From Cylindrospermum sp. FACHB-282 (lineage in GTDB: Bacteria > Cyanobacteriota > Cyanobacteriia > Cyanobacteriales > Nostocaceae), in contig NZ_JACJRJ010000001.1 of the NCBI RefSeq assembly GCF_014697195.1, positions 62,001 to 126,000 on the forward strand: a stretch of DNA of 64,000 nucleotides, given 5' to 3'. The notes beneath the pieces are model-generated. The model was not told the origin of the DNA, searched no databases, and was given only the letters and a program-made list of their open reading frames with translations. The position numbers and the translations under genes were made by a program. How positions within the stretch are numbered: position 1 is the stretch's first letter; each line of letters starts with the position of its first letter. Below, one piece after another: positions 24,912-35,575 of the stretch.

Positions 24912-25688
24912 TTAATATCTTCCAAGTGTCCCCTGACGCTTAACCTCCTTTTCAGCAACCCAAAAAACCAAAAGACCCAAGATTAAATATCCCATTCCAT
25001 TAAACAAGGCAATAGCAAGCTCATGCCAGTCTAAATTTGAATTACGTACCATTATATGCCGCAGTATCACCGTGCCTGGTATCATGGGCAGCACTGGGCC
25101 CAAAAACCGGAGCGGTTGGCTCCAACTCTCAGGGGGAAATGCCAGCAAAAGTAATAATCCAAACCCAAGCAGCCCCAGCAATTGCTGCACACGTTTAAAC
25201 AGCAACGCCAAAGCTCCCATTGAGAAAGAAATACCATAAGCTCCCAGTAAAACTGTAATTAGCGGCAAAATCAGACTCGGCGAAAAATGTAGCTGACGTC
25301 CAGTAAAAAATGTAATCACCAGCAAAACAGCTACAACCAAAACTAGATGTATTGTCAGGCTAGCAAATGCTCGCGCTAGCAAAATCATCGGGGCGCCGTA
25401 TGGAGAAAGGAAGAGTTGCTCTAGTGTGCCAATCTGCGCCTCCGTTTGTAGCCCAAGAGAAATATTATTGACAGTAAATATTACTAAATTCCAAAGTACA
25501 TACCCAAACACAATTGCATCCAATCGAGTACCAAACTGCATACTAGAACCAGCAATATAGCGAGCGCTAAGGAACAGCCCATAAAACAAAACAGTAATAG
25601 TAATCACTGCGGCAATTGCATCAAGCGGATAGCGGGTAAACTCTATCCAGACACGTTTAAGTTCGGCTTGGAACAGTTTAAGCATCAC
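24912..25688 (-). CDS. ABC-2 type transporter permease
   Basis: 258 residues with about six membrane helices (for example AAVITITVLFYGLFLSARYI, HLVLVVAVLLVITFFTG, and the C-terminal GMGYLILGLLVFWVAEKEVK). It resembles NodJ/DrrB-like ABC-2 export permeases. Its start codon overlaps the end of the ATPase gene by 11 bp, so the two are translationally coupled. The substrate is unknown. The pair is divergent from the lanthipeptide genes across a 950-bp gap, so a role in export of or immunity to that peptide is possible, but similar pairs occur elsewhere without such genes. Confidence 0.88.
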   Translation of the reverse strand: MMLKLFQAELKRVWIEFTRYPLDAIAAVITITVLFYGLFLSARYIAGSSMQFGTRLDAIVFGYVLWNLVIFTVNNISLGLQTEAQIGTLEQLFLSPYGAPMILLARAFASLTIHLVLVVAVLLVITFFTGRQLHFSPSLILPLITVLLGAYGISFSMGALALLFKRVQQLLGLLGFGLLLLLAFPPESWSQPLRFLGPVLPMIPGTVILRHIMVRNSNLDWHELAIALFNGMGYLILGLLVFWVAEKEVKRQGTLGRY

Positions 25689-26601
25689 TGTTTTCTCGCA
25701 GTAGTTCTAAGTATATTTGCGTTAGATCAGCCTGTTCCTGTTTGACTTGCACTAGAGGCAAAGGATTAAGTACTTCTAATATCTGATATAGCCCTTGTGG
25801 CGTTCCCGAATAACCAATTTGTTCATCAACAACTGTTGCTCCTAATGCCAAAATTTTGTTAATTCGCCCTGAATCTAACTGTTCTTGAATGTTGATGATA
25901 TATGTAGAGTCAGAAAATCGCCTGATAATTTCTTGAGTTGGTTCCAAAGTTATAAGCTTGCCATTTTGAATAATAGCTACCCAATCTGATAACTCTTCCG
26001 CCACTTCAATTTGATGCGTAGTCAGCAGTACAGCGCAGCCTTCTGCGGCCACCTCACGAACTAAACCTTTAACTTCCTGGCTTGCTTCTGCATCCAGCCC
26101 CAAAATAGGCTCATCTAACAGCAATAGTCGGGGATGGTGAACTAAAGCCACTGCAATAGCTAATTTTTGCTGCATACCGCGAGAAAGCCCTTGAACCGGA
26201 GTGCGACGCTTATGCAGAAGTCCAAATCGCTCCAACATATAAATACCTTGTTGATAGGCAACTTTACGGTTCAAGCCTCTTAAAATACCAAAATACTCCA
26301 GGTTTTCTTCCGCAGTCAGCTGCCAGTAGAGGTTACGCGTTCCTTCTAAGACTGCACCCAATCTCCGCAACGCTTGCGGTTGGCGATGAGGATCAAAACC
26401 TTCAATTTTCACCCAACCCCTATCAGGCTGAATGAGACCGGCAATCATTTTAATGCTGGTTGTTTTACCTGCTCCATTATGACCAAGAAAAGCCAATATT
26501 TCTCCAGCATTAATGCTAAAAGAAACCCCACGCACTGCTTCAACTAGCTTTCCATGCTGTCGGTATGCTTTTTGCAGGTTATGTGTCTCTAGTACCGTCA
26601 T
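25678..26601 (-). CDS. ABC transporter ATP-binding protein (exporter type)
   Basis: 307 residues from the ATG at 26601 (MTVLETHNLQKAY); the longer frame to 26736 adds 45 residues before the conserved start and is not preferred. Walker A FLGHNGAGKTTSIKM, signature LSRGMQQKLAIA, Walker B LLLLDEPILGLDAEA and the switch His in LLTTHQIEV are all present. The C-terminal ~80 residues after the nucleotide-binding domain are typical of DrrA-like exporter ATPases. It energises the permease encoded downstream, which it overlaps. Confidence 0.93.
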   Translation of the reverse strand: MTVLETHNLQKAYRQHGKLVEAVRGVSFSINAGEILAFLGHNGAGKTTSIKMIAGLIQPDRGWVKIEGFDPHRQPQALRRLGAVLEGTRNLYWQLTAEENLEYFGILRGLNRKVAYQQGIYMLERFGLLHKRRTPVQGLSRGMQQKLAIAVALVHHPRLLLLDEPILGLDAEASQEVKGLVREVAAEGCAVLLTTHQIEVAEELSDWVAIIQNGKLITLEPTQEIIRRFSDSTYIINIQEQLDSGRINKILALGATVVDEQIGYSGTPQGLYQILEVLNPLPLVQVKQEQADLTQIYLELLRENSDA

Positions 26602-27554: not shown

Positions 27555-27911
27555 ATGGCGATGGTTGCAACTAAATATTTGCTGAATACAGATGAAATCC
27601 GGCAAATTCAAATGTTAATGGCTCTGCTTTTGTGTATACCGCCTCAAAGTAAATTGCGCGAGGTGTTCGACAGGGCATTAGCAGCTTCAGAAAGTCAAAC
27701 ATTGAATAGAATCAAACCATGTACCGATGCGAGTATAGCTGGTTTAAGAGATTGGTTTGAATCTCTGATGATTCAAGGAGGACTGACACCGGAAGAACAA
27801 AGTTTGCTGGATTGGCAAAGTAATTCAGATAATATGTCCGCAGCTATTAAGGAGTTTACTTCCATTCAAGACAAGACAAATCTGAAGATTAGCTTCCAGC
27901 AAAAATCCTAA
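27555..27911 (+). CDS. Unknown 118-residue protein, first gene of the lanthipeptide locus
   Basis: ATG 27555 is preceded by AAGGGAG. The protein is mainly helical (LLNTDEIRQIQMLMALLLCI, then KLREVFDRALAASESQTLNR and TPEEQSLLDWQ) with a single Cys pair (LLCIPPQ, KPCTDAS), no signal peptide, and a polar C-terminus. I recognise no family. It ends 39 bp before the precursor gene, so both are likely co-transcribed. Its conserved position, if confirmed in other genomes, would suggest a regulator, chaperone or immunity protein. It lacks the Cys/Ser/Thr-rich tail of a lanthipeptide precursor. Confidence 0.75.
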   Translation: MAMVATKYLLNTDEIRQIQMLMALLLCIPPQSKLREVFDRALAASESQTLNRIKPCTDASIAGLRDWFESLMIQGGLTPEEQSLLDWQSNSDNMSAAIKEFTSIQDKTNLKISFQQKS

Positions 27912-27950
27912 GCTGGAACTTAGTCAAGTCGATCAATTTGGAGGTGTTTT

Positions 27951-28235
27951 ATGTCTACTACCACTCTTGAGAAATCATCTGTAGATTACCTTGAGCAGTT
28001 ATTTAACCAAGCTGCAATTGATGCAGAATTCAGTAGTGAACTTTCGAGAAATCCTGAAGTATTTGGCATCTCAAATGATGTCAAAATGGTGCTACCACCA
28101 TCAGTTGAAATGCAAGATCAGTCCTTTTTTGAATTGTTCAATGATGCTTTGGGTGAACTCAACCAAATCGTAGCTTGTGCAAGTACTTGTAGCGCAAAGA
28201 TTTTCACCATCGTCTGTGACGGATCGACGAAGTAA
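27951..28235 (+). CDS. Class II lanthipeptide precursor peptide
   Basis: 94 residues, ATG 27951 after a strong GGAGGTG site. The leader (about residues 1-75) is acidic and helical with ELSRNPEVFGISNDVKMVLPP, resembling nitrile-hydratase-like (NHLP) leader features. The tail CASTCSAKIFTIVCDGSTK (from residue 76) has Cys76, Cys80 and Cys89 and several Ser/Thr, suited to three thioether rings. No clear double-glycine cleavage site is seen; GELNQIVA precedes the core. Asp90 follows the last Cys and could be hydroxylated by the encoded oxygenase. A LanM gene lies downstream. Ring pattern and cleavage site are inference. Confidence 0.85.
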   Translation: MSTTTLEKSSVDYLEQLFNQAAIDAEFSSELSRNPEVFGISNDVKMVLPPSVEMQDQSFFELFNDALGELNQIVACASTCSAKIFTIVCDGSTK

Positions 28236-28285
28236 TGATATGTCACATATTAGTTTTTGAGGTAATAGCCTCATAAGCTATATCC

Positions 28286-28337
28286 AGGCTAGCAACACAT
28301 TTAATACCGTGATGCTAGCCTAGTTTATTTATTTTTT
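28286..28337 (+). terminator. Hairpin with T-rich tail between precursor and lanM
   Basis: AGGCTAGCA (28286-28294) pairs with TGCTAGCCT (28313-28321), followed by TTTATTTATTTTTT. A third half-copy, AGGCTAGC, follows at 28351. A leaky terminator here would give more precursor than synthetase, as is common in lantibiotic operons. Confidence 0.75.
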
Positions 28338-28435
28338 GGCTTCTGTTTAGAGGCTAGCCGCAAATTTAATTATAGTCCAATACGGTTTGGTTAAGGCTTA
28401 AGTTTTTATCAAAGTCAATTTTTTGAACCAACCGC

Positions 28436-28500
28436 AAAGGACGCATGCGCGCAGCGATGCCCGTTGGCGTAAGCCTGCCGTTAGGCATAGGGCTGTAGAA
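28436..28500. repeat. Palindrome-rich dispersed repeat upstream of lanM
   Basis: A short GC-rich block in an AT-rich gap, containing GCATGCGCGCAGCGATGC and GCCTGCCGTTAGGC. It resembles the palindromic blocks inside the MITE at 11658. It separates the precursor terminator from lanM and suggests insertion into the locus. Confidence 0.5.
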
Positions 28501-28559
28501 CGCAAAGAAAGAGAAGGAAGAAGTACTGAGCCGTATTTAATTATAGTCGCTGTATAACT

Positions 28560-31500
28560 ATGTTTGATAATTCTCTGCTACTGGAAATTGCCAGCCGTGC
28601 TAGTAATCTAGTTGAGCGTACTCTCATCGTTCAAAAATTAGCTAATAATCAAGGGCAGATAATATTTACTACAGATATTAGCCCTTTCGATTATTGGAAT
28701 ATTAAGAAGCTATCTGGTAAATTATCTGGACAGTTAATCAAGGATTCTTATCAGCGAGGGACAGTTAATATATCGATTATTGATGATCTACAAAAACTAT
28801 TGCTTGATTATAAATTATATCAATTAAATTTACACCAATTGTCTGATGACCAGAAGTTAGAGTTTACTAAACCACATATTAAATGGTTGCAAGTATATCA
28901 AGCAGCTTTGTTAACATTAGACCTACCGAGAGATAACTTTTATGTTACTGACTGGTACGAACCAGAAATTTATTATGGCAATTTTGCGAAAGTTTGTGAA
29001 CCTTTTCTCCGGCTAATACAAAATGAATTGCAGTCCTTATGTGATGCGGTTAATGTATCTCCAGACCAATATAAAATAAATCCGCAAGTAGTCACAGATA
29101 TTCAACTACAGTTTCTAAATCGTTTTGATATGTCCTTAGCTTGGGCACTGGAGGCAGATATTAATGTTTACTGCTCTCGAAACCAAATTACTAAAGCGCC
29201 TGATGCTGTTGATGCATATATCGATTATCTAGAAAAAACCTTTAAAAATAAACAAGATTATCATTGCTTTTATTACAAGTTTCCAGTGCTGGCAAAAACC
29301 CTAGCTCAAGCCACCAAATTTATCTGCGATTTTGGCGAAGAACTCATACAACGTTTAACAAGTGATGCTAATGAAATTAGTACTACTTTCTTTGGTAACA
29401 AACAACTTTCCCAAATAAAATCCTTTAATTTGGGTAAATCTGACTACCATGCTGGCGGCAAAAGTGTTGTCATTGTTGAACTAGAACTAGATAACTCAGA
29501 ACTAGCAACTATTGTTTACAAGCCTCGTTGTATTAAGTCTGAAGCGGCTATGCAAGGTTTGTTAGCAGCTTTGGCTAAAAATAAAGTTGTTGAATTTGCT
29601 AGTTATCAAGTGCTTTGTAAAGATGGCTATGGTTATGCAGAGTTTATTCCCTCCAATAGAACTTATGTCCAAGAAGAGGAGAAAATACAGAGATTTTATC
29701 AACAATTAGGGGGATATTTAGGCATATTTCATATATTAGGTGGTAGTGATCTGCATTATGAAAATATTCTTGTTGCTGATGGTAATGCCTTCATTTGTGA
29801 CTGCGAAACTGTTTTGGAAGTAGTACCGCCAGGGAGGGATTTATTCTCAGATACAGTGTTTGATTCTGTATTTAAAACAGCTTTGCTGGCATGGCCTCGT
29901 GACAATGCAAGCGATAACAGTATTGATACCAACATCAGCGGCTACAGTGGCGGTGAATCTTACCAAATACCATTTGCTATCCCCACAATTAATCAGCACC
30001 GTATGTCATTAGCTCTAGCCGTTGAACATCAAGTTGGTGTTTTCGTTGAGCTAGAAGCGACGAATCGAATATATTATAACGGTCAGCTAGTGAGGCCGCA
30101 AGATTATAAAAATTGTATTGTCGAAGGTTTTAACCAAGTTTATGACTGGTTTCAAGAAAATTCTACTACAGCCATAACGCTGATCACAGAATTATTTACA
30201 CCATCGTTAGTGCGCTTTATCAATTGGGGTACAGAAGCCTATGGGAAGTTAATTGTCTCAGCTAGACATCCAAAATGCCTCGCCGAACCATTGGAAGTGG
30301 ATTTGCTGTTTCACAGTTTAATCGTACATCGGCGGCAATGGGACAAGGAGGGCAAGTTAGCTGATTTGGAATTAGCGGGAATGTGGCAATTAGATATTCC
30401 CCTATTTACAGCAAAGGCAACTAGCTGTGATGAGTTGATTTATAACTACCAACAATCATTACCAGAAACTTTGGCGATTTCACCCTTGGATAATGCAATT
30501 AGAAGGATTCAGAAATTATCTTCAGAAAACCGCAACCGCCAAAATCACTATATCTATACCAGCTTGTCCACTGAAGAGATTAATAGCCCACATTTCATTG
30601 CTGCTGCTGTTAATTATGCCCAGCAAATAGCGTTGCAGTTATGCGAGATGCTTCAACCTCCATCTAGTAAAGCTCCTTGGACAAACTACGAATTTACAGC
30701 CTTGGGAAAACGCCAGGTGAATATCAGGGGAGATTTGTACGACGGTACAGCAGGAATTTGCTTATTTTTAGCTTACCTGGATGCAATTCAACCACAGCCA
30801 GAATTTCGCCAAGTGGCAGAGCGATCGCTATTGTATTCTATAGAGCAACGCAACACTACATTAATTGGCGCATTCCAAGGCGAGACGGGCTTGATTTACT
30901 TGTTGACGCATCTAGCCCAGCTATGGAATCAACCGCAGTTGCTCGATTTGGCTGTGGAATTGACTGATGAGTTAATACCGCGTATTAGCCAAGACCATTA
31001 TTTTGATATTCTGCATGGCGTCGCTGGGATTATTCCTGTGATGCTCAGTCTAGCAGAGGCTACTTCTGGTAAAGGCATCGATTGCGCTCATCTGTGTGCT
31101 CAACACTTACTACAACACGCGATTTGTCAGGGTAATACACTCAGTTGGCGCCATCATCAACAGGGGAACGTCCAAGGAAATTTGACAGGCTTTTCTCACG
31201 GTGCGGGGGGAATTGGTTGGGCGCTAATTTTGCTTGGTTGTCACACTAACCAACCTGAATATATAGAAGCAGGTCGCCAAGCTTTTGCTTATGAAGCCAC
31301 CCAATTTGATGCCGTTCACCTTGATTGGTATGACTTACGCACCTCAGTGATGACAGCAGACCCCAATGAACCACATTTTGCTAATGCTTGGTGTAATGGT
31401 GCAGCGGGTATTGGTTTGAGCCGTATTGCTAGTTGGGCAACTTTAGGGAAAACAGATGATGATATATTGAGCGATGCTTACAGGGCACTAAATGCAACTT

Positions 31501-31802
31501 TACGTAATTTTCAAGCATTGGGAAATGATACTTTGTGTCATGGAAAAGCAGGTAATGCCGAGCTATTATTGCGGTTTTCTCTGTTGAGAAATGAACCTTC
31601 TTTTCAAATGGAAGCTAATGTACAAGCTCAGGCACAGTGGCACAATTTTGAAAAGGCTCGTTGTTGGATTTGCGGGACTGGAGGTAATGATATATCTCCC
31701 GATTTAATGCTGGGATTGGCAGGTATTGGTATGCACTTTTTACGTTTAGCTTATCCGCAACGTGTGCCTTCACCTTTGTTACTTGACCCGCCACCTAAAT
31801 AA
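28560..31802 (+). CDS. lanM: Class II lanthipeptide synthetase LanM
   Basis: 1080 residues, full length. The N-terminal dehydratase half phosphorylates and eliminates Ser/Thr in the core: Asp295-Tyr-His297 (KSDYHAGGKS), Lys in YKPRC, His399 and Asn402 (DLHYENIL), Asp414 and Glu416 (ICDCETVLE). The C-terminal half, from about residue 660, is the LanC-like cyclase that adds Cys to the dehydro residues. Its zinc ligands are Cys945 (AWCNGAAG), Cys993 and His994 (LCHGKAG), the common Cys-Cys-His set. The start ATG 28560 has a weak ribosome site and lies 324 bp after the precursor. It acts in the cytoplasm on the 94-residue peptide. Confidence 0.97.
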   Translation: MFDNSLLLEIASRASNLVERTLIVQKLANNQGQIIFTTDISPFDYWNIKKLSGKLSGQLIKDSYQRGTVNISIIDDLQKLLLDYKLYQLNLHQLSDDQKLEFTKPHIKWLQVYQAALLTLDLPRDNFYVTDWYEPEIYYGNFAKVCEPFLRLIQNELQSLCDAVNVSPDQYKINPQVVTDIQLQFLNRFDMSLAWALEADINVYCSRNQITKAPDAVDAYIDYLEKTFKNKQDYHCFYYKFPVLAKTLAQATKFICDFGEELIQRLTSDANEISTTFFGNKQLSQIKSFNLGKSDYHAGGKSVVIVELELDNSELATIVYKPRCIKSEAAMQGLLAALAKNKVVEFASYQVLCKDGYGYAEFIPSNRTYVQEEEKIQRFYQQLGGYLGIFHILGGSDLHYENILVADGNAFICDCETVLEVVPPGRDLFSDTVFDSVFKTALLAWPRDNASDNSIDTNISGYSGGESYQIPFAIPTINQHRMSLALAVEHQVGVFVELEATNRIYYNGQLVRPQDYKNCIVEGFNQVYDWFQENSTTAITLITELFTPSLVRFINWGTEAYGKLIVSARHPKCLAEPLEVDLLFHSLIVHRRQWDKEGKLADLELAGMWQLDIPLFTAKATSCDELIYNYQQSLPETLAISPLDNAIRRIQKLSSENRNRQNHYIYTSLSTEEINSPHFIAAAVNYAQQIALQLCEMLQPPSSKAPWTNYEFTALGKRQVNIRGDLYDGTAGICLFLAYLDAIQPQPEFRQVAERSLLYSIEQRNTTLIGAFQGETGLIYLLTHLAQLWNQPQLLDLAVELTDELIPRISQDHYFDILHGVAGIIPVMLSLAEATSGKGIDCAHLCAQHLLQHAICQGNTLSWRHHQQGNVQGNLTGFSHGAGGIGWALILLGCHTNQPEYIEAGRQAFAYEATQFDAVHLDWYDLRTSVMTADPNEPHFANAWCNGAAGIGLSRIASWATLGKTDDDILSDAYRALNATLRNFQALGNDTLCHGKAGNAELLLRFSLLRNEPSFQMEANVQAQAQWHNFEKARCWICGTGGNDISPDLMLGLAGIGMHFLRLAYPQRVPSPLLLDPPPK

Positions 31803-31891
31803 AAATAATATAGCAACTAATGTATCTCCAAATGTGGAAGTATTAAGTTTTTTGGGGATTGAAGTTTTTTTAAACTAAGGGAAAACCAACT

Positions 31892-32851
31892 ATGTCCAAA
31901 GAAGCTGTTTTGCAGTTTTATCAATTTGTCTTAAATTCGCCAGCATTAAAAGACAATTTTAGCGCCATCACTGGATTGCCAGAGTTGATTAAGCTTGGGG
32001 CAAAGTATAACTACATTTTTAATCAGGAAGATATCGCGGAAGCATCTGCTATTTATGCTCAAAAAAGCAGCGAAACTGAAGATAAAAATGGTCAAATAGG
32101 GCTGTTTAAAAAAACTGATGCTGATTTCAGCGAGAAACATTCTCAGTTTTACCACTATGAATTTAAATTTTCGGATGTTTCAGGTTTTGAAGAAATAGAT
32201 CAGGAGATAGAAAAGCTCAAAATTAAACCGAGTACAGTGGATATGGAGTTATATGAAAAAAGCTTTCGAGATGAAGATTTTAATTTTGCCTCGATATCTC
32301 CTGACTCTCCTGAATTTAAACAGCAGTATGATGAAATTATGAAGCCTTGTTTTGATTCAAAAATCTCTTTACCAGAACATGAATACACACAGCGTCAATT
32401 TCACTTAATTAATCTGGATCTTCATGTTGATCATTTGCTCTATGAAGATTATTTAATGACAAAAGTTAGATTAGTTAAGCTACTCGAAAAATTGTTTGGA
32501 TTTGAAATTAAGTTCTCTGGCAGCTTATGGTATCCACCAAATGCTTATAGATTATGGCACACTAATGAAAATCAACCAGGCTGGAGGATGTACCTAATTG
32601 ATTTCGATGAGTTTGAATCAAACTCAGAAAGTCAGGCTTTTTTCCGCTACATGAACCCCCAAACTAAAGAGTTAGTTACTATTGAAGATAAACCTAAATT
32701 GATCAGGTTTTTTAAGGTAGAGCAAGAGGAAGATAAATTATTTTGGCATTGCATTGTTAATGCAACAAAATTTAACAGATGGAGTTTTGGGTTTCTTGTT
32801 TCTGATGACTGGATGGATAATTTTTTGCTAAGAAATAGCAATAAAAAGTAG
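31892..32851 (+). CDS. Nif11-domain / 2OG-Fe(II) oxygenase fusion
   Basis: 319 residues. Residues 1-50 (SKEAVLQFYQFVLNSPALKD, then GLPELIKLGAKYNYIFNQED) match the Nif11 leader-peptide domain. The C-terminal ~110 residues look like a 2-oxoglutarate/Fe(II) oxygenase of the small phage-like type: LWYPPNAYRLWHTNENQPGW, a FFRYMNP strand, then FWHCIVNATKFNRWSFGF. Likely iron ligands are His223 with Asn225 or Glu226, and His286. Arg296 and Ser298 (RxS) would bind 2-oxoglutarate. The middle ~140 residues are unassigned. It lies 89 bp after lanM on the same strand, so it is probably a tailoring hydroxylase for the lanthipeptide. The Nif11 part could serve leader-like recognition; this is inference. 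Confidence 0.78.
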   Translation: MSKEAVLQFYQFVLNSPALKDNFSAITGLPELIKLGAKYNYIFNQEDIAEASAIYAQKSSETEDKNGQIGLFKKTDADFSEKHSQFYHYEFKFSDVSGFEEIDQEIEKLKIKPSTVDMELYEKSFRDEDFNFASISPDSPEFKQQYDEIMKPCFDSKISLPEHEYTQRQFHLINLDLHVDHLLYEDYLMTKVRLVKLLEKLFGFEIKFSGSLWYPPNAYRLWHTNENQPGWRMYLIDFDEFESNSESQAFFRYMNPQTKELVTIEDKPKLIRFFKVEQEEDKLFWHCIVNATKFNRWSFGFLVSDDWMDNFLLRNSNKK

Positions 32852-32932
32852 GTGATGGTGAATAGCTATTTTCTCGGTAGACGTTGCTTCGACTTTCCAC
32901 ACTCAGATTTCTGTCACTCACTAGGAGCTACT

Positions 32933-34615
32933 ATGATTAACTTTGATGCAATGACCGATGAAACAATAACTGATGAAAGAAAGTACTTTTATTGGTTAAT
33001 GAATATTGACGAGATGCCAGAATTTCTTCCCAAAGCTAAAAATATAGCAGATGCTTATCTGAAAGCAGGGGAAGAGCGAATGTTAGATGACAGCAATCAA
33101 GACTTTCCAAAACTATACAGGTTTTTTGATTACACACCTGAAGCTTTCGATGAACGCCTACAAAAAATTTATGATGGTCTTGTTAAGGATTATGCTGAAT
33201 TTAACCTTGATGAAGCTTTAAAGGTATACACTCGTTCTGTTTTGATTGAAAGATTACGGAACTTTGCCCCTTTCAACCTAACCGATGGTGCTTGGCTACA
33301 AAGGGTTGCTGGTGCAGGTACTTCTACAGATGTTGAGTCTTTGTTGTTCTCTATATGGTCTGATGAAGTAGGAAATGGTGATCCAACAAAGAACCATAGT
33401 AATGTATACAAAACACTTCTAAACAGTCTCAATGTTGAAATGCCAAGTGAGGCTTCATATCCGTTTGTTAAACAGGAAAACCTCTTTGATTCTGCTTTTA
33501 CAAATCCAACATTTCAATTAGCAGTATCTCAGTTTCCTAAAACTTTCTTTCCAGAATTAATAGGCATGACCTTGTATCTAGAGTGGGAAAGCACTCCATC
33601 CATAGCACCTCTAGTCAAGATACTAGAACGGCGTGATATTAATCCCCAGTTCTTCAGTTTACATGTTGCTATTGACAATCCATCGAGTGGTCATGGTGCA
33701 ATTGCTAAACAAGCAGTAGAACGTTATCTTGATGAAATTCGTCAATCTAGTGGTGAGAAAGAAGTTCAAGAGCAGTGGAGGCGTATATGGATTGGATATG
33801 TAACTTTTGCCACCACAGGAACACTCGGTGAAGATTTAGCAAAATATTTCGCTTCGGAGGCTCAGAAGACACCAAAAAAAAAGGCACAAGATAAAATGAT
33901 TGCTTTAATCAAGAAGAAAGCGCCTTTTGCAAGTACTATACATGACGGTAAGTCAGTACACAGTAAACTTATCAATCAGTGGTTTTCTGATCCACAAGGT
34001 TTTGTTAAAGCTCTAGAAACTTCATCCTATGTTGAGCCTGGAAGTGCAAGTAATAGCCAATTTATGCGGCTATTAGCCTTTGATGGCCCTATGTACAAGA
34101 TTTTTACAGAAGCGGAGATTGAAATCATCAAGGAGTGGATACTAACTCTCAAAGAACAACCGCCTAGCCCAACTCCCCCAGTTGAAGACAGCGCCGAAAA
34201 AATGAAACAGCTCATCATCAATAAAGGTGAATTTATTGAGGCTAGTGGAGGTGATCATCATGGTTCAAGATCCTTGAGTGATAACGGTACAACAAAGCGA
34301 GTAGATGAGTGGTTCCAAGAGCCAATTCCTTTCATGAAAGCTATGGTGAACAATAACTTTGTGAACACTACAGATGTTGAAAGTAGTCGCCTAATTGAAC
34401 TGATCACAGCAAGAGGAATGGCAGGAGTCTTTTCAAATGATGAAGTAGAGACGATCCGCCAATGGATAAGAGATGGGGCAAAAATTCCAGATGAAGAAGT
34501 CCAGCCAGTTGCACCTCCAATCGCGCCAACAACGCTTTTCTCTGAATCTATACAAATAGCGTCGAGACTGGGTAAAAGAGTACACAGGATACTGGGTCAG
34601 GGCACAGTTAACTAA
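32933..34615 (+). CDS. Heme-oxygenase-like iron oxidase with duplicated C-terminal module
   Basis: 560 residues from ATG 32933, which has AGGAG five bases upstream; an earlier GTG at 32852 would overlap the previous gene and adds 27 odd residues. Residues ~80-310 fit the Haem_oxygenas_2 / iron-containing redox enzyme family (HDO fold): IWSDEVGNGDPTKNHSNVY (Glu145, His155), FPELIGMTLYLEWES (Glu208, Glu217) and FSLHVAIDNPSSGHG (His244, Asp248, His254) offer the iron ligands. Residues ~321-410 and ~424-515 are two copies of one module (WF-DPQGFVKAL / WFQEPIPFMKAM, ending in EIIKEWI / ETIRQWI). Such enzymes do O2-dependent C-C, C-N or N oxidation. The substrate here is unknown, probably the peptide. 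Confidence 0.78.
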   Translation: MINFDAMTDETITDERKYFYWLMNIDEMPEFLPKAKNIADAYLKAGEERMLDDSNQDFPKLYRFFDYTPEAFDERLQKIYDGLVKDYAEFNLDEALKVYTRSVLIERLRNFAPFNLTDGAWLQRVAGAGTSTDVESLLFSIWSDEVGNGDPTKNHSNVYKTLLNSLNVEMPSEASYPFVKQENLFDSAFTNPTFQLAVSQFPKTFFPELIGMTLYLEWESTPSIAPLVKILERRDINPQFFSLHVAIDNPSSGHGAIAKQAVERYLDEIRQSSGEKEVQEQWRRIWIGYVTFATTGTLGEDLAKYFASEAQKTPKKKAQDKMIALIKKKAPFASTIHDGKSVHSKLINQWFSDPQGFVKALETSSYVEPGSASNSQFMRLLAFDGPMYKIFTEAEIEIIKEWILTLKEQPPSPTPPVEDSAEKMKQLIINKGEFIEASGGDHHGSRSLSDNGTTKRVDEWFQEPIPFMKAMVNNNFVNTTDVESSRLIELITARGMAGVFSNDEVETIRQWIRDGAKIPDEEVQPVAPPIAPTTLFSESIQIASRLGKRVHRILGQGTVN

Positions 34616-34642
34616 CTAGTTGCCTCTTAAAATTTCAGGAAA

Positions 34643-35575
34643 ATGAGCAAATTTGAGTTTGAAGTGGTCACTATTGCCGATATTGAAAAAACTGGATTTT
34701 TAGATATAGAGGCATCCCAAGTTAAGACTATCTCTTGTCAGGGACGAGTTGATTTTCGTGTCGAAGATTTGGAGAATGGGGTGAGTTTGGAGTTGGTGGC
34801 GATTCCGGGGGGTGAGTTCGTGATGGGTTCACCCAATGATGAGGAATGGCGAAATTGGTATGGGAATGCTTTTCCAAGTCTCAGGGATGTGAATGTAGAA
34901 GGGCCTCAACACAGGGTGGTGATTAACCCGCTCTGGATGAGTAAATATCCTGTGACTCAAGCTCAGTGGCGAGCTGTTGCAGCGCTTCCTAAAGTTGAGC
35001 GTGACCTAGATCCTGAGCCATCTAACTTTCAAGGCTCACGCCATCCTGTGGAGTCGATATTCTGGTCTGATGCAGTGGAATTTTGCGATCGCCTATCCCA
35101 AAAGACAGGACAACAGTATCAATTACCCAGTGAGTCCCAGTGGGAATATGCATGTCGTGGGGGAACAACCACACCCTTTTACTTTGGTGAAACGATTACA
35201 ACAGAGTTAGGGAATTACCGGGGAACTGATTGGCGATTTCTGGACAAAACTTACCCAGGATTCTATGGTCGAGGTGATCGGGGAATTTATCGTCAGCAAA
35301 CAACTGAAGTGGGAATCTTTCCTCCTAACCCCTTTGGACTTTATGATATGCACGGGAATGTGTGGGAGTGGTGCCTAGATCACTGGCATGATAACTACCA
35401 AGGAGCGCCCACCGATGGCAGTGCATGGGTTACAGGTGGTGATGATAGCTGTCGGATAGTGCGCGGTGGTTCCTGGCCCTATTTCCCCGGTCTGTGCCGT
35501 TCAGCGACCCGCCACAAGTATGCCTTGGGTATCTGGCATATCGGTATCGGATTTCGGATTGTTTGCTCTACTTGA
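34643..35575 (+). CDS. Formylglycine-generating-enzyme-like protein lacking one catalytic Cys
   Basis: 310 residues. Residues ~48-310 carry the FGE-sulfatase (SUMF1) fold: LELVAIPGGEFVMGSP, YPVTQAQWRAVA, LPSESQWEYACRGGTTTPFY, GLYDMHGNVWEWCLDHW and VRGGSWPYFPGLCRSATR. True FGEs use two Cys; here the second is Cys285, while the first falls on Tyr280, so copper-dependent formylglycine formation is unlikely. Many FGE-fold proteins act instead in C-S bond or hydroxylation chemistry, or bind. The first ~45 residues are unassigned. It starts 27 bp after the iron oxidase gene on the same strand and may be the last gene of the lanthipeptide operon. Confidence 0.85.
   Translation: MSKFEFEVVTIADIEKTGFLDIEASQVKTISCQGRVDFRVEDLENGVSLELVAIPGGEFVMGSPNDEEWRNWYGNAFPSLRDVNVEGPQHRVVINPLWMSKYPVTQAQWRAVAALPKVERDLDPEPSNFQGSRHPVESIFWSDAVEFCDRLSQKTGQQYQLPSESQWEYACRGGTTTPFYFGETITTELGNYRGTDWRFLDKTYPGFYGRGDRGIYRQQTTEVGIFPPNPFGLYDMHGNVWEWCLDHWHDNYQGAPTDGSAWVTGGDDSCRIVRGGSWPYFPGLCRSATRHKYALGIWHIGIGFRIVCST

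What the first reader, a model, noticed from the sequence alone, without database searches (positions are those of the whole stretch)
27555..35575. Class II lanthipeptide locus with three different oxidative tailoring candidates
Six same-strand genes: unknown 118-aa protein, precursor, LanM, Nif11-2OG/Fe(II) oxygenase fusion, heme-oxygenase-like iron oxidase, and a formylglycine-generating-enzyme-like protein. The gaps after the precursor are moderate (324, 89, 81, 27 bp) and internally repeat-free after lanM, suggesting one operon. LanM and the family motifs are seen in the sequence; joint action on the peptide is inference. I know of lanthipeptide clusters with one hydroxylase (CinX/DurX type) but not this set.
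Basis: partly seen in the sequence, partly recalled or inferred. Interest (0 to 1): 0.85.

Follow-up and report, generated by a model that had tools for sequence, protein, structure and literature searches.

The report
Cyanobacterial cinnamycin-type lanthipeptide gene cassette
This is a cyanobacterial version of the known gene set that makes cinnamycin-like peptide antibiotics; it carries two unusual extra genes, an iron oxidase-like gene found only here among the related clusters and a relative of rapidly mutating recognition proteins that appears to have become fixed inside the cassette.

Summary
The 118-aa 'unknown' is a LanN lysinoalanine synthase (DurN family). The precursor is of the cinnamycin family, core CASTCSAKIFTIVCDGSTK. 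The 'Nif11-2OG fusion' is the CinX/DurX-type Asp hydroxylase; the cinnamycin producer's CinX has the same Nif11-like N-terminus. The core lanN-lanA-lanM-lanX is therefore a known kind of pathway. Against a Dolichospermum locus, homology runs from an upstream divergent ABC-transporter pair to the FGE-like gene, with different flanks on both sides. The only gene-content difference inside is a 1.76-kb segment with the HO-like gene, present only in this window. The FGE-like gene occurs in 2 of 7 cyanobacterial loci. It lacks one of the two FGE copper cysteines and belongs to a cyanobacterial family with retroelement-type hypervariable positions, yet 13 of 16 such positions are identical between the two genera: more likely a binder than an oxidase. 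The HO-like protein keeps a full set of dimetal ligands and may modify Lys8, unique to this core; that is conjecture. 'Three oxidative tailoring candidates' reduces to one known hydroxylase, one plausible extra oxidase and one probable binding protein.

The parts
24912..25688 (-). ABC-2 type permease, candidate exporter/immunity (LanH-like role)
   Evidence: Pfam ABC2_membrane; 82% identical and equally placed in Dolichospermum L012; first gene inside the shared block
25678..26601 (-). ABC transporter ATPase (LanT-like role), divergent from lanN; start chosen at the MTVLE ATG
   Evidence: Pfam ABC_tran; 87% in L012; best-scoring match in 2 congeners and 2 other family genomes 33-38% identical. 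No closer to the ABC ATPase beside cinX than to other ABC ATPases (129-139 against 126-152 bits)
27555..27911 (+). lanN: lysinoalanine synthase (DurN/CinN family)
   Evidence: PF19375 E 1.9e-28; PDB 6c0g lysinoalanine synthase E 6e-18
27951..28235 (+). lanA: cinnamycin-family precursor; leader ending ..NQIVA (inferred cut), core CASTCSAKIFTIVCDGSTK (28176-28232)
   Evidence: NF033431 E 7e-28, PF19398 E 4e-25; alignment of 14 precursors
28286..28321 (+). hairpin followed by a T-rich run between lanA and lanM (possible terminator/attenuator)
   Evidence: fold of 28270-28345: z -4.13, 0 of 200 shuffles as stable; stretch picked by eye; not listed by the consensus terminator scan
28560..31802 (+). 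lanM: class II lanthionine synthetase
   Evidence: TIGR03897 599 bits; C945, C993, H994 (zinc ligands, roles recalled) invariant in 11 LanMs, the window's included
31892..32851 (+). lanX: CinX/DurX-type Asp15 beta-hydroxylase with Nif11-like N-terminal domain
   Evidence: full-length match 35-79% to LanX in L012-L021; Nif11 also over the cut-off in L014, L017, L018 and just below it in L021
32852..34615 (+). HO-like dimetal oxidase (HDO) with C-terminal repeats; likely start 32933. Lies in a segment (32876-34631) absent from Dolichospermum
   Evidence: PF14518 E 1.5e-20; blastn borders; E145, H155, E208, E217, H244, D248, H254 (numbered from 32933) invariant in 6 aligned sequences, this one included
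34643..35575 (+). FGE-like/C-type-lectin-fold protein of the hypervariable cyanobacterial family, variable positions shared between two genera
   Evidence: PF03781 E 1.5e-48; 83% in L012; dN/dS 0.19; variable-position analysis

Best explanation
A cinnamycin-type lanthipeptide cassette that appears to move as a unit. LanM dehydrates Thr4, Ser6, Thr11 and Thr18 of the 19-residue core and closes three methyllanthionine rings (Cys1-Thr18, Thr4-Cys14, Cys5-Thr11; ring pattern from established knowledge of cinnamycin). LanX beta-hydroxylates Asp15. LanN joins dehydro-Ser6 to Lys19 as lysinoalanine. The leader is cut after ..IVA, and the divergent ABC pair exports the peptide or protects the cell. 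Gene and residue conservation are shown; the reactions are inferred from orthology. Two genes are additions. The FGE-like protein is probably a non-catalytic binder recruited from the hypervariable FGE/C-lectin family, its ligand face now fixed; it may bind the peptide or its target (immunity, escort). The HO-like protein, present only here, probably oxidises the peptide, the best guess being the Lys8 side chain. Probabilities: N-A-M-X core 0.95; X as Asp15 hydroxylase 0.9; FGE-like as binder rather than oxidase 0.6; HO-like acting on this peptide 0.5; on Lys8 specifically 0.2.
For: Core. C1, C5, S6, T11, C14, D15, G16, T18, K19 and Ser/Thr4 are kept in 14 of 14 precursors aligned. Gene order N-A-M-X is that of L012-L015 and of the actinobacterial loci L018-L021; functions of CinN, A, M, X as tabulated in PMC6974636 (passages). 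Cassette: homology to L012 lies between 24890 and 35567 and none is found outside it. Binder reading of FGE-like: first copper Cys replaced by Tyr280 (alignment); family with 1-33 matches per genome in 60 of 60 relatives; 16 chosen hypervariable positions enriched for NNY codons in 26 relatives (363/414 vs 2411/4484; 100/121 vs 1079/2026 within fourfold boxes); window-Dolichospermum identity 13/16 there versus mean 13%, maximum 44%, in 377 other pairs. HO-like: ligand set. Lys8 occurs in 1 of 14 cores, this one, and HO-like in this locus only. HDOs HrmI and BesC act on lysine and 4-chlorolysine (PMC13108848, passages). The plasmid match with the highest coverage is fused to a LodA lysine-epsilon-oxidase-like protein.
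Against: No product, transcript or enzyme assay. The HO-like/Lys8 link rests on one locus against one sister locus. HO-like could be a chance insertion: no counterpart in the 11 related loci. Scytonema and Plectonema loci have the order A-M-X-N, so the order is not universal. The 16 positions were chosen by eye before the codon test; 12 of them have NNY fractions of 0.92 or more, but 283 (0.31), 295 (0.50) and 292 (0.69) do not, and other variable columns (269, 270, 298, 302) were left out. In the two cassette genes themselves the bias is weak (13/16, p 0.036; 12/16, p 0.11). FGE-like also resembles PvdO, an oxidase (5hha, E 1e-33), whose catalytic residue was not tested. The ABC ATPase is no closer to the actinobacterial cluster ABC than to others. 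The LanX model was poor (pLDDT 62) and gave no fold match at E <= 0.001, so the 2OG fold was not confirmed here.
Confidence: 0.8

Rival explanations
1. One reading: a lanthipeptide matured jointly by three different oxidases (2OG, HDO, FGE-type).
For: All three genes lie in one same-strand run with short gaps; FGE-like and LanX are under similar purifying selection between two genera (dN/dS 0.19 each); HO-like keeps the metal ligands; FGE-like resembles PvdO, an oxidase.
Against: LanX is the known CinX type. FGE-like lacks one of the two copper cysteines and sits in a family with a hypervariable binding face. HO-like is missing from the sister cassette.
Confidence: 0.12
2. HO-like is an accidental insertion with no role in the peptide; FGE-like is the immunity or escort protein; the product is a plain cinnamycin-type peptide.
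For: The HO-like segment has sharp borders next to conserved sequence and is absent from Dolichospermum (40 bp there); among 385 other cyanobacterial genomes drawn from the phylum one weak match.
Against: The gene is on the same strand between lanX and FGE-like with AGGAG before its ATG, and its presumed metal ligands are intact; short gaps fit co-transcription.
Confidence: 0.35
3. The FGE-like gene is a stray member of the abundant cyanobacterial FGE family that happens to sit next to the cluster.
For: The family has 1-33 matches per genome; FGE-like is present in only 2 of 7 cyanobacterial loci.
Confidence: 0.1

Closest known systems
Cinnamycin / duramycin / kyamicin clusters (Actinobacteria)
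   Same: lanN-lanA-lanM-lanX in the same order; same ring, Lal and Asp15 residues; Nif11-like N-terminus in the S. cinnamoneus LanX too
   Different: Core lacks the GP of the published consensus CxxxCSxGPFTxxCDGxTK (PMC12837462, passages): A7-K8-I9 here; ABC pair upstream and divergent; HO-like and FGE-like added; regulators such as cinR/K were not looked for
Divamides (Prochloron, cyanobacterial symbiont; divA/M/X/N/MT/T)
   Same: Cyanobacterial cinnamycin-like pathway with LanM, LanX, LanN and an ABC transporter (PMC9505594, passages)
   Different: Divamide has an N-trimethyltransferase. Two further div genes are of unknown function; the Prochloron sequence was not compared, so they could not be checked against HO-like or FGE-like
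Heme oxygenase-like dimetal oxidases (HrmI, BesC, SznF)
   Same: PF14518 and a 3-His/3-4-carboxylate set by alignment
   Different: Extra C-terminal repeats; the longest plasmid match is fused to a LodA-like protein; substrate unknown
DGR-diversified FGS/C-lectin proteins of cyanobacteria (PMC7159879, PMC10907252; passages)
   Same: Same domain family; relatives show the C-terminal hypervariable layout
   Different: Stand-alone protein in a lanthipeptide cassette, variable positions shared between two genera; DGR parts for it not found, template repeat not searched

Membership tests
Cinnamycin-type lanthipeptide pathway (LanN/A/M/X) | LanN (lysinoalanine synthase) homologue | tested here: met
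   PF19375 E 1.9e-28; 6c0g E 6e-18
Cinnamycin-type lanthipeptide pathway (LanN/A/M/X) | Precursor with C1, S/T4, C5, S6, T11, C14, D15, T18, K19 | tested here: met
   14-precursor alignment; NF033431
Cinnamycin-type lanthipeptide pathway (LanN/A/M/X) | LanM with cyclase zinc ligands | tested here: met
   C945, C993, H994 invariant in 11
Cinnamycin-type lanthipeptide pathway (LanN/A/M/X) | LanX hydroxylase | tested here: met
   sequence likeness over the full length; fold not confirmed
Cinnamycin-type lanthipeptide pathway (LanN/A/M/X) | Mature product with MeLan, Lal and OH-Asp | not testable with these tools
   needs expression and MS/NMR
PE-binding cinnamycin-like antibiotics (product class) | Core consensus CxxxCSxGPFTxxCDGxTK | tested here: not met
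   A7-K8-I9 where the consensus has x-G-P; position 8 is Gly in 12 of 14 cores, Ser in 1, Lys only here. Not filed as a PE binder
PE-binding cinnamycin-like antibiotics (product class) | Binding of phosphatidylethanolamine | not testable with these tools
   needs the product and a lipid-binding assay
HO-like dimetal oxidases | PF14518 and 3H/3C or 3H/4C ligand set | tested here: met
   PF14518; E145/H155/E208/E217/H244/D248/H254 invariant in 6 sequences; roles assigned by comparison, no structure
Copper formylglycine-generating enzyme | Two copper-binding Cys in the GGSxxCxxxxC segment | tested here: not met
   first Cys is Tyr280, second is Cys285 (alignment with 6s07; which Cys bind copper is recalled)
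EgtB/OvoA/SenA-type iron sulfoxide synthase | N-terminal DinB domain with iron-binding His | tested here: not met
   only the FGE domain is found, from residue 50; the DinB/His requirement is recalled
PvdO (dihydropyoverdine dehydrogenase) | PvdO catalytic residue / NCBIfam cut-off | tested here: inconclusive
   149.6 bits against a cut-off of 500; best PDB match 5hha; catalytic residue not checked
DGR-type FGS/C-lectin variable proteins | Domain family with C-terminal hypervariable positions in NNY codons | tested here: inconclusive
   met for the relatives taken together; in the window's own gene the bias is weak (13/16, p 0.036) and the positions are shared with Dolichospermum
DGR-type FGS/C-lectin variable proteins | Template repeat and DGR reverse transcriptase for this gene | tested here: inconclusive
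   one RVT_1 match in the whole genome, on another contig, in a 646-aa frame; its type was not determined and no template repeat was searched

The most novel reading that the evidence does not exclude
A hypervariable, retroelement-diversified recognition protein has been domesticated into a lanthipeptide cassette as a fixed receptor, immunity or escort protein, and a lysine-directed HO-like dimetal oxidase has been added that rewrites Lys8 of a cinnamycin-type scaffold (hydroxylamine, nitro or cleaved side chain), giving a peptide that no longer targets phosphatidylethanolamine in the usual way.
Probability: 0.12. Interest if true: 0.75.

Novelty: new variant of a known kind. Interest (0 to 1): 0.45.

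Why it matters
It extends cinnamycin-type pathways in cyanobacteria (this window plus six more loci) and gives a natural pair of cassettes whose gene content differs only by an HO-like oxidase, so the role of such an enzyme on a ribosomal peptide can be tested directly. If the FGE-like protein is a fixed member of the retroelement-diversified family, its ligand can be sought with defined candidates (the lanthipeptide or its lipid target), which is hard for the hypervariable members.

Tried and rejected
HO-like as a general cyanobacterial gene: rejected, 1 of 385 other genomes drawn, weak. HO-like relatives in viral contigs: none confirmed. LodA partner in the own genome: none, so the LodA fusion is only a hint. 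Structure of LanX: pLDDT 62, no fold match at E <= 0.001; structure of HO-like alone: pLDDT 38. Neither is used. LanX profile against solved structures: best a Nif11 domain protein, E 0.0017, the rest E 0.11 or worse. C-terminal repeats of HO-like: no Pfam match better than E 0.15. Plasmid search for LanN: none. A paper on the PvdO mechanism: none found. FGE-like matches a phage protein family labelled 'kinase' (E 8e-84); not followed. A two-His site in LanX (HTN..H invariant in 11; likeness to AspH recalled) was not confirmed. The extra gene in L014, L016 and L017 looks like a 2OG oxygenase by an HxD..H motif (recalled) but has no Pfam match and PHROG matches with other names, so it is left as a candidate.

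In print: that no paper describes an HO-like or FGE-like gene in a cinnamycin-type cluster rests on searches and 80 of one open-access library, listings capped and only partly opened. Passages were seen of PMC11356792, PMC13060382, PMC9505594, PMC12837462, PMC10907252, PMC7159879, PMC13108848, PMC11251773, PMC7268733 and PMC6974636; no paper was read whole. PMC8120280 (HO-like genes beside thioamidated peptides) was seen as a listing only.

Rows dropped before a count: L047 and L048 (truncated FGE-like copies) were left out of the counts (26 of 28 relatives used); L022 ends before lanM and is not counted for M or X. In one search six HO-like sequences (the window's and 5 from 30 plasmid records) were aligned; L076 (unannotated) was fetched and not used.
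Full report
Setting. The six ORFs stand as described.

Identity of the core. ORF1 matches Pfam DurN (E 1.9e-28) and the solved duramycin lysinoalanine synthase 6c0g (E 6e-18), 38% identical over the aligned part. The precursor matches the NCBIfam cinnamycin family and Pfam DurB-like. A scan of one genome for each of 84,980 species with a LanN alignment returned 11 loci: six cyanobacteria (Dolichospermum sp. ST_sed8, Oscillatoria princeps MAG, Oscillatoria sp. PCC 10802, an Oscillatoriales MAG, Scytonema hyalinum MAG, Plectonema radiosum) and five Actinomycetota, including Streptomyces cinnamoneus and Marinactinospora thermotolerans. In the family 4 of 217 genomes had LanN over the family cut-off and a fifth below it, the window's own genome included among the four; in a phylum draw 2 of 386 did, own included. 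LanM relatives occur in 10 of the 11 loci (45-87% identity) and ORF4 relatives in the same 10 over the full length (35-79%); the eleventh contig ends before them. The S. cinnamoneus protein also has the Nif11-like N-terminus, just below Pfam's cut-off (22.3 of 23.8 bits). The order N-A-M-X is shared with L012-L015 and L018-L021; L016 and L017 have A-M-X-N. Functions are as tabulated for CinN, CinA, CinM and CinX (PMC6974636, passages). ORF4 is therefore LanX, not a novel fusion. A model of it was too poor to confirm a fold.

The peptide. In an alignment of 14 precursors, C1, C5, S6, T11, C14, D15, G16, T18 and K19 are invariant and position 4 is Ser or Thr. The window core CASTCSAKIFTIVCDGSTK has Ala-Lys-Ile at 7-9, where the published consensus has x-Gly-Pro (PMC12837462, passages). 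Lys8 is found in 1 of 14 cores, Ser8 in 1 (Dolichospermum), Gly8 in 12. Phosphatidylethanolamine is the target of known members; a changed target or affinity is possible here, by inference.

Cassette borders. Against the Dolichospermum contig, DNA homology is found in five pieces between 24890 and 35567 at 79-88% identity and nowhere else in the window. It starts with an ABC permease and ATPase divergent from lanN (82% and 87% identical) and ends with the FGE-like gene. No window gene outside it has a counterpart on that contig by tblastn. In two congeners and two other family members the best-scoring ABC match is 33-38% identical, and the congeners lack LanN. So the block behaves as a unit, FGE-like included. 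Besides the HO-like segment, the lanA-lanM spacer differs: about 420 bp on the Dolichospermum side and about 150 bp on the window side have no counterpart. dN/dS between the two is 0.11 (LanN), 0.21 (LanA), 0.19 (LanM), 0.19 (LanX), 0.19 (FGE-like), 0.19 (ABC ATPase).

HO-like gene. The one difference in gene content is a segment at 32876-34631 where Dolichospermum has 40 bp. Of 386 cyanobacterial genomes drawn, the window's own and one weak match (30% identity over residues 115-249) have a relative. Of plasmid records 30 have one, all under 60% identity; the only one covering at least 80% of it (37% identity, 90% covered) is a Paraburkholderia protein that joins LodA_N and LodA_C domains to the HO-like part and its C-terminal region, next to an FAD oxidoreductase. 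Three others read sit near acyl-CoA dehydrogenase, P450, saccharopine-dehydrogenase-like or SidA/PvdA-family genes; a fourth has none of these beside it. In six aligned sequences E145, H155, E208, E217, H244, D248 and H254 are invariant, which fits the three-His, three-or-four-carboxylate sites described for this superfamily (PMC13108848, passages). HrmI oxidises the lysine side-chain amine to nitro and BesC cleaves 4-chlorolysine (same review). With Lys8 present only where the gene is present, Lys8 is the first site to test; it is a guess from one pair of loci.

FGE-like gene. The best solved relative is PvdO (E 1e-33); a Treponema variable protein and FGEs follow. The alignment with a bacterial FGE puts Tyr280 at the first copper Cys and Cys285 at the second (which residues bind copper is recalled). 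Matches exist in 60 of 60 relatives searched, 1 to 33 per genome, some weak, many in open frames of 600-1000 residues. C-termini of 26 relatives are hypervariable. At 16 positions chosen by eye, 363 of 414 codons end in C or T against 2411 of 4484 in residues 100-278, and 100 of 121 against 1079 of 2026 when only fourfold boxes are counted. Twelve of the 16 have fractions of 0.92 or more; 283, 295 and 292 (0.31, 0.50, 0.69) do not fit, 294 is at 0.81, and variable columns 269, 270, 298 and 302 were left out. The bias is what adenine-directed mutagenesis by diversity-generating retroelements would leave, and FGE/FGS domains are reported as the hypervariable part of such systems in cyanobacteria (PMC7159879 and PMC10907252, passages). 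Among 377 other pairs the identity at these positions averages 13% with a maximum of 44%; the 31 pairs more than 75% alike elsewhere lie between 0 and 44%. Window and Dolichospermum share 13 of 16. The face thus looks fixed in the cassette lineage. None of the window's 16 residues is Asp, Asn or Ser, which make up 158 of 414 in the relatives. A rather hydrophobic, fixed binding face suggests a peptide or lipid ligand; this is inference. Against it: the codon bias in the two cassette genes alone is weak (p 0.036 and 0.11).

Other cyanobacterial loci. They carry different additions: a candidate 2OG oxygenase (L014, L016, L017; a 59-residue remnant in L013), which among cyanobacteria occurs in the 4 loci with a Pro9 core and in 0 of 3 without, but in 0 of the 4 actinobacterial loci L018-L021, which also have Pro9. 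The cassette type thus varies its tailoring around a constant N, A, M, X set, and the window is one such variant.

Verdict. Known pathway, new variant. The claim of three different oxidases is reduced to one known hydroxylase, one plausible extra oxidase and one probable binder.

Noticed in passing
L014:14187-14942, L016:10419-11153, L017:10420-11136, remnant L013:15080-15256: A second candidate 2OG-type oxygenase in other cyanobacterial cinnamycin-type loci, found where a core has Pro9 (4 of 4 cyanobacterial loci, one as a remnant) and not where none has (0 of 3); absent from the 4 actinobacterial loci L018-L021, which have Pro9.
   Followed up: partly
L016:7460-8248, L017:7689-8519: A protein of about 270 aa between lanM and lanX in the Scytonema and Plectonema loci; the Plectonema one matches VWA7_N (PF25107), the other was judged alike by eye.
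   Followed up: no
L013:10473-11392, L017:3441-4180: Two precursor genes in tandem with nearly identical leaders and different cores.
   Followed up: no
G000:C40:33535-47685 (L001-L003, L009): Three further LanM-type (DUF4135) genes in the same genome; beside the ones read lie several small ORFs with GG-type leader ends.
   Followed up: partly
L046-L073 and window 34643-35575: Cyanobacterial FGE-like proteins show hypervariable C-terminal positions biased to NNY codons, as expected from diversity-generating retroelements.
   Followed up: partly
L028:6255-9665 (Paraburkholderia caribensis plasmid): A LodA/GoxA-type protein fused to an HO-like dimetal oxidase domain, followed by an FAD oxidoreductase.
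   Followed up: partly
window 31892-32851 and LanX in L012-L021: LanX, that of S. cinnamoneus included, has an invariant HTN..H in place of the usual HxD..H (motif recalled): no carboxylate two residues after the His.
   Followed up: partly
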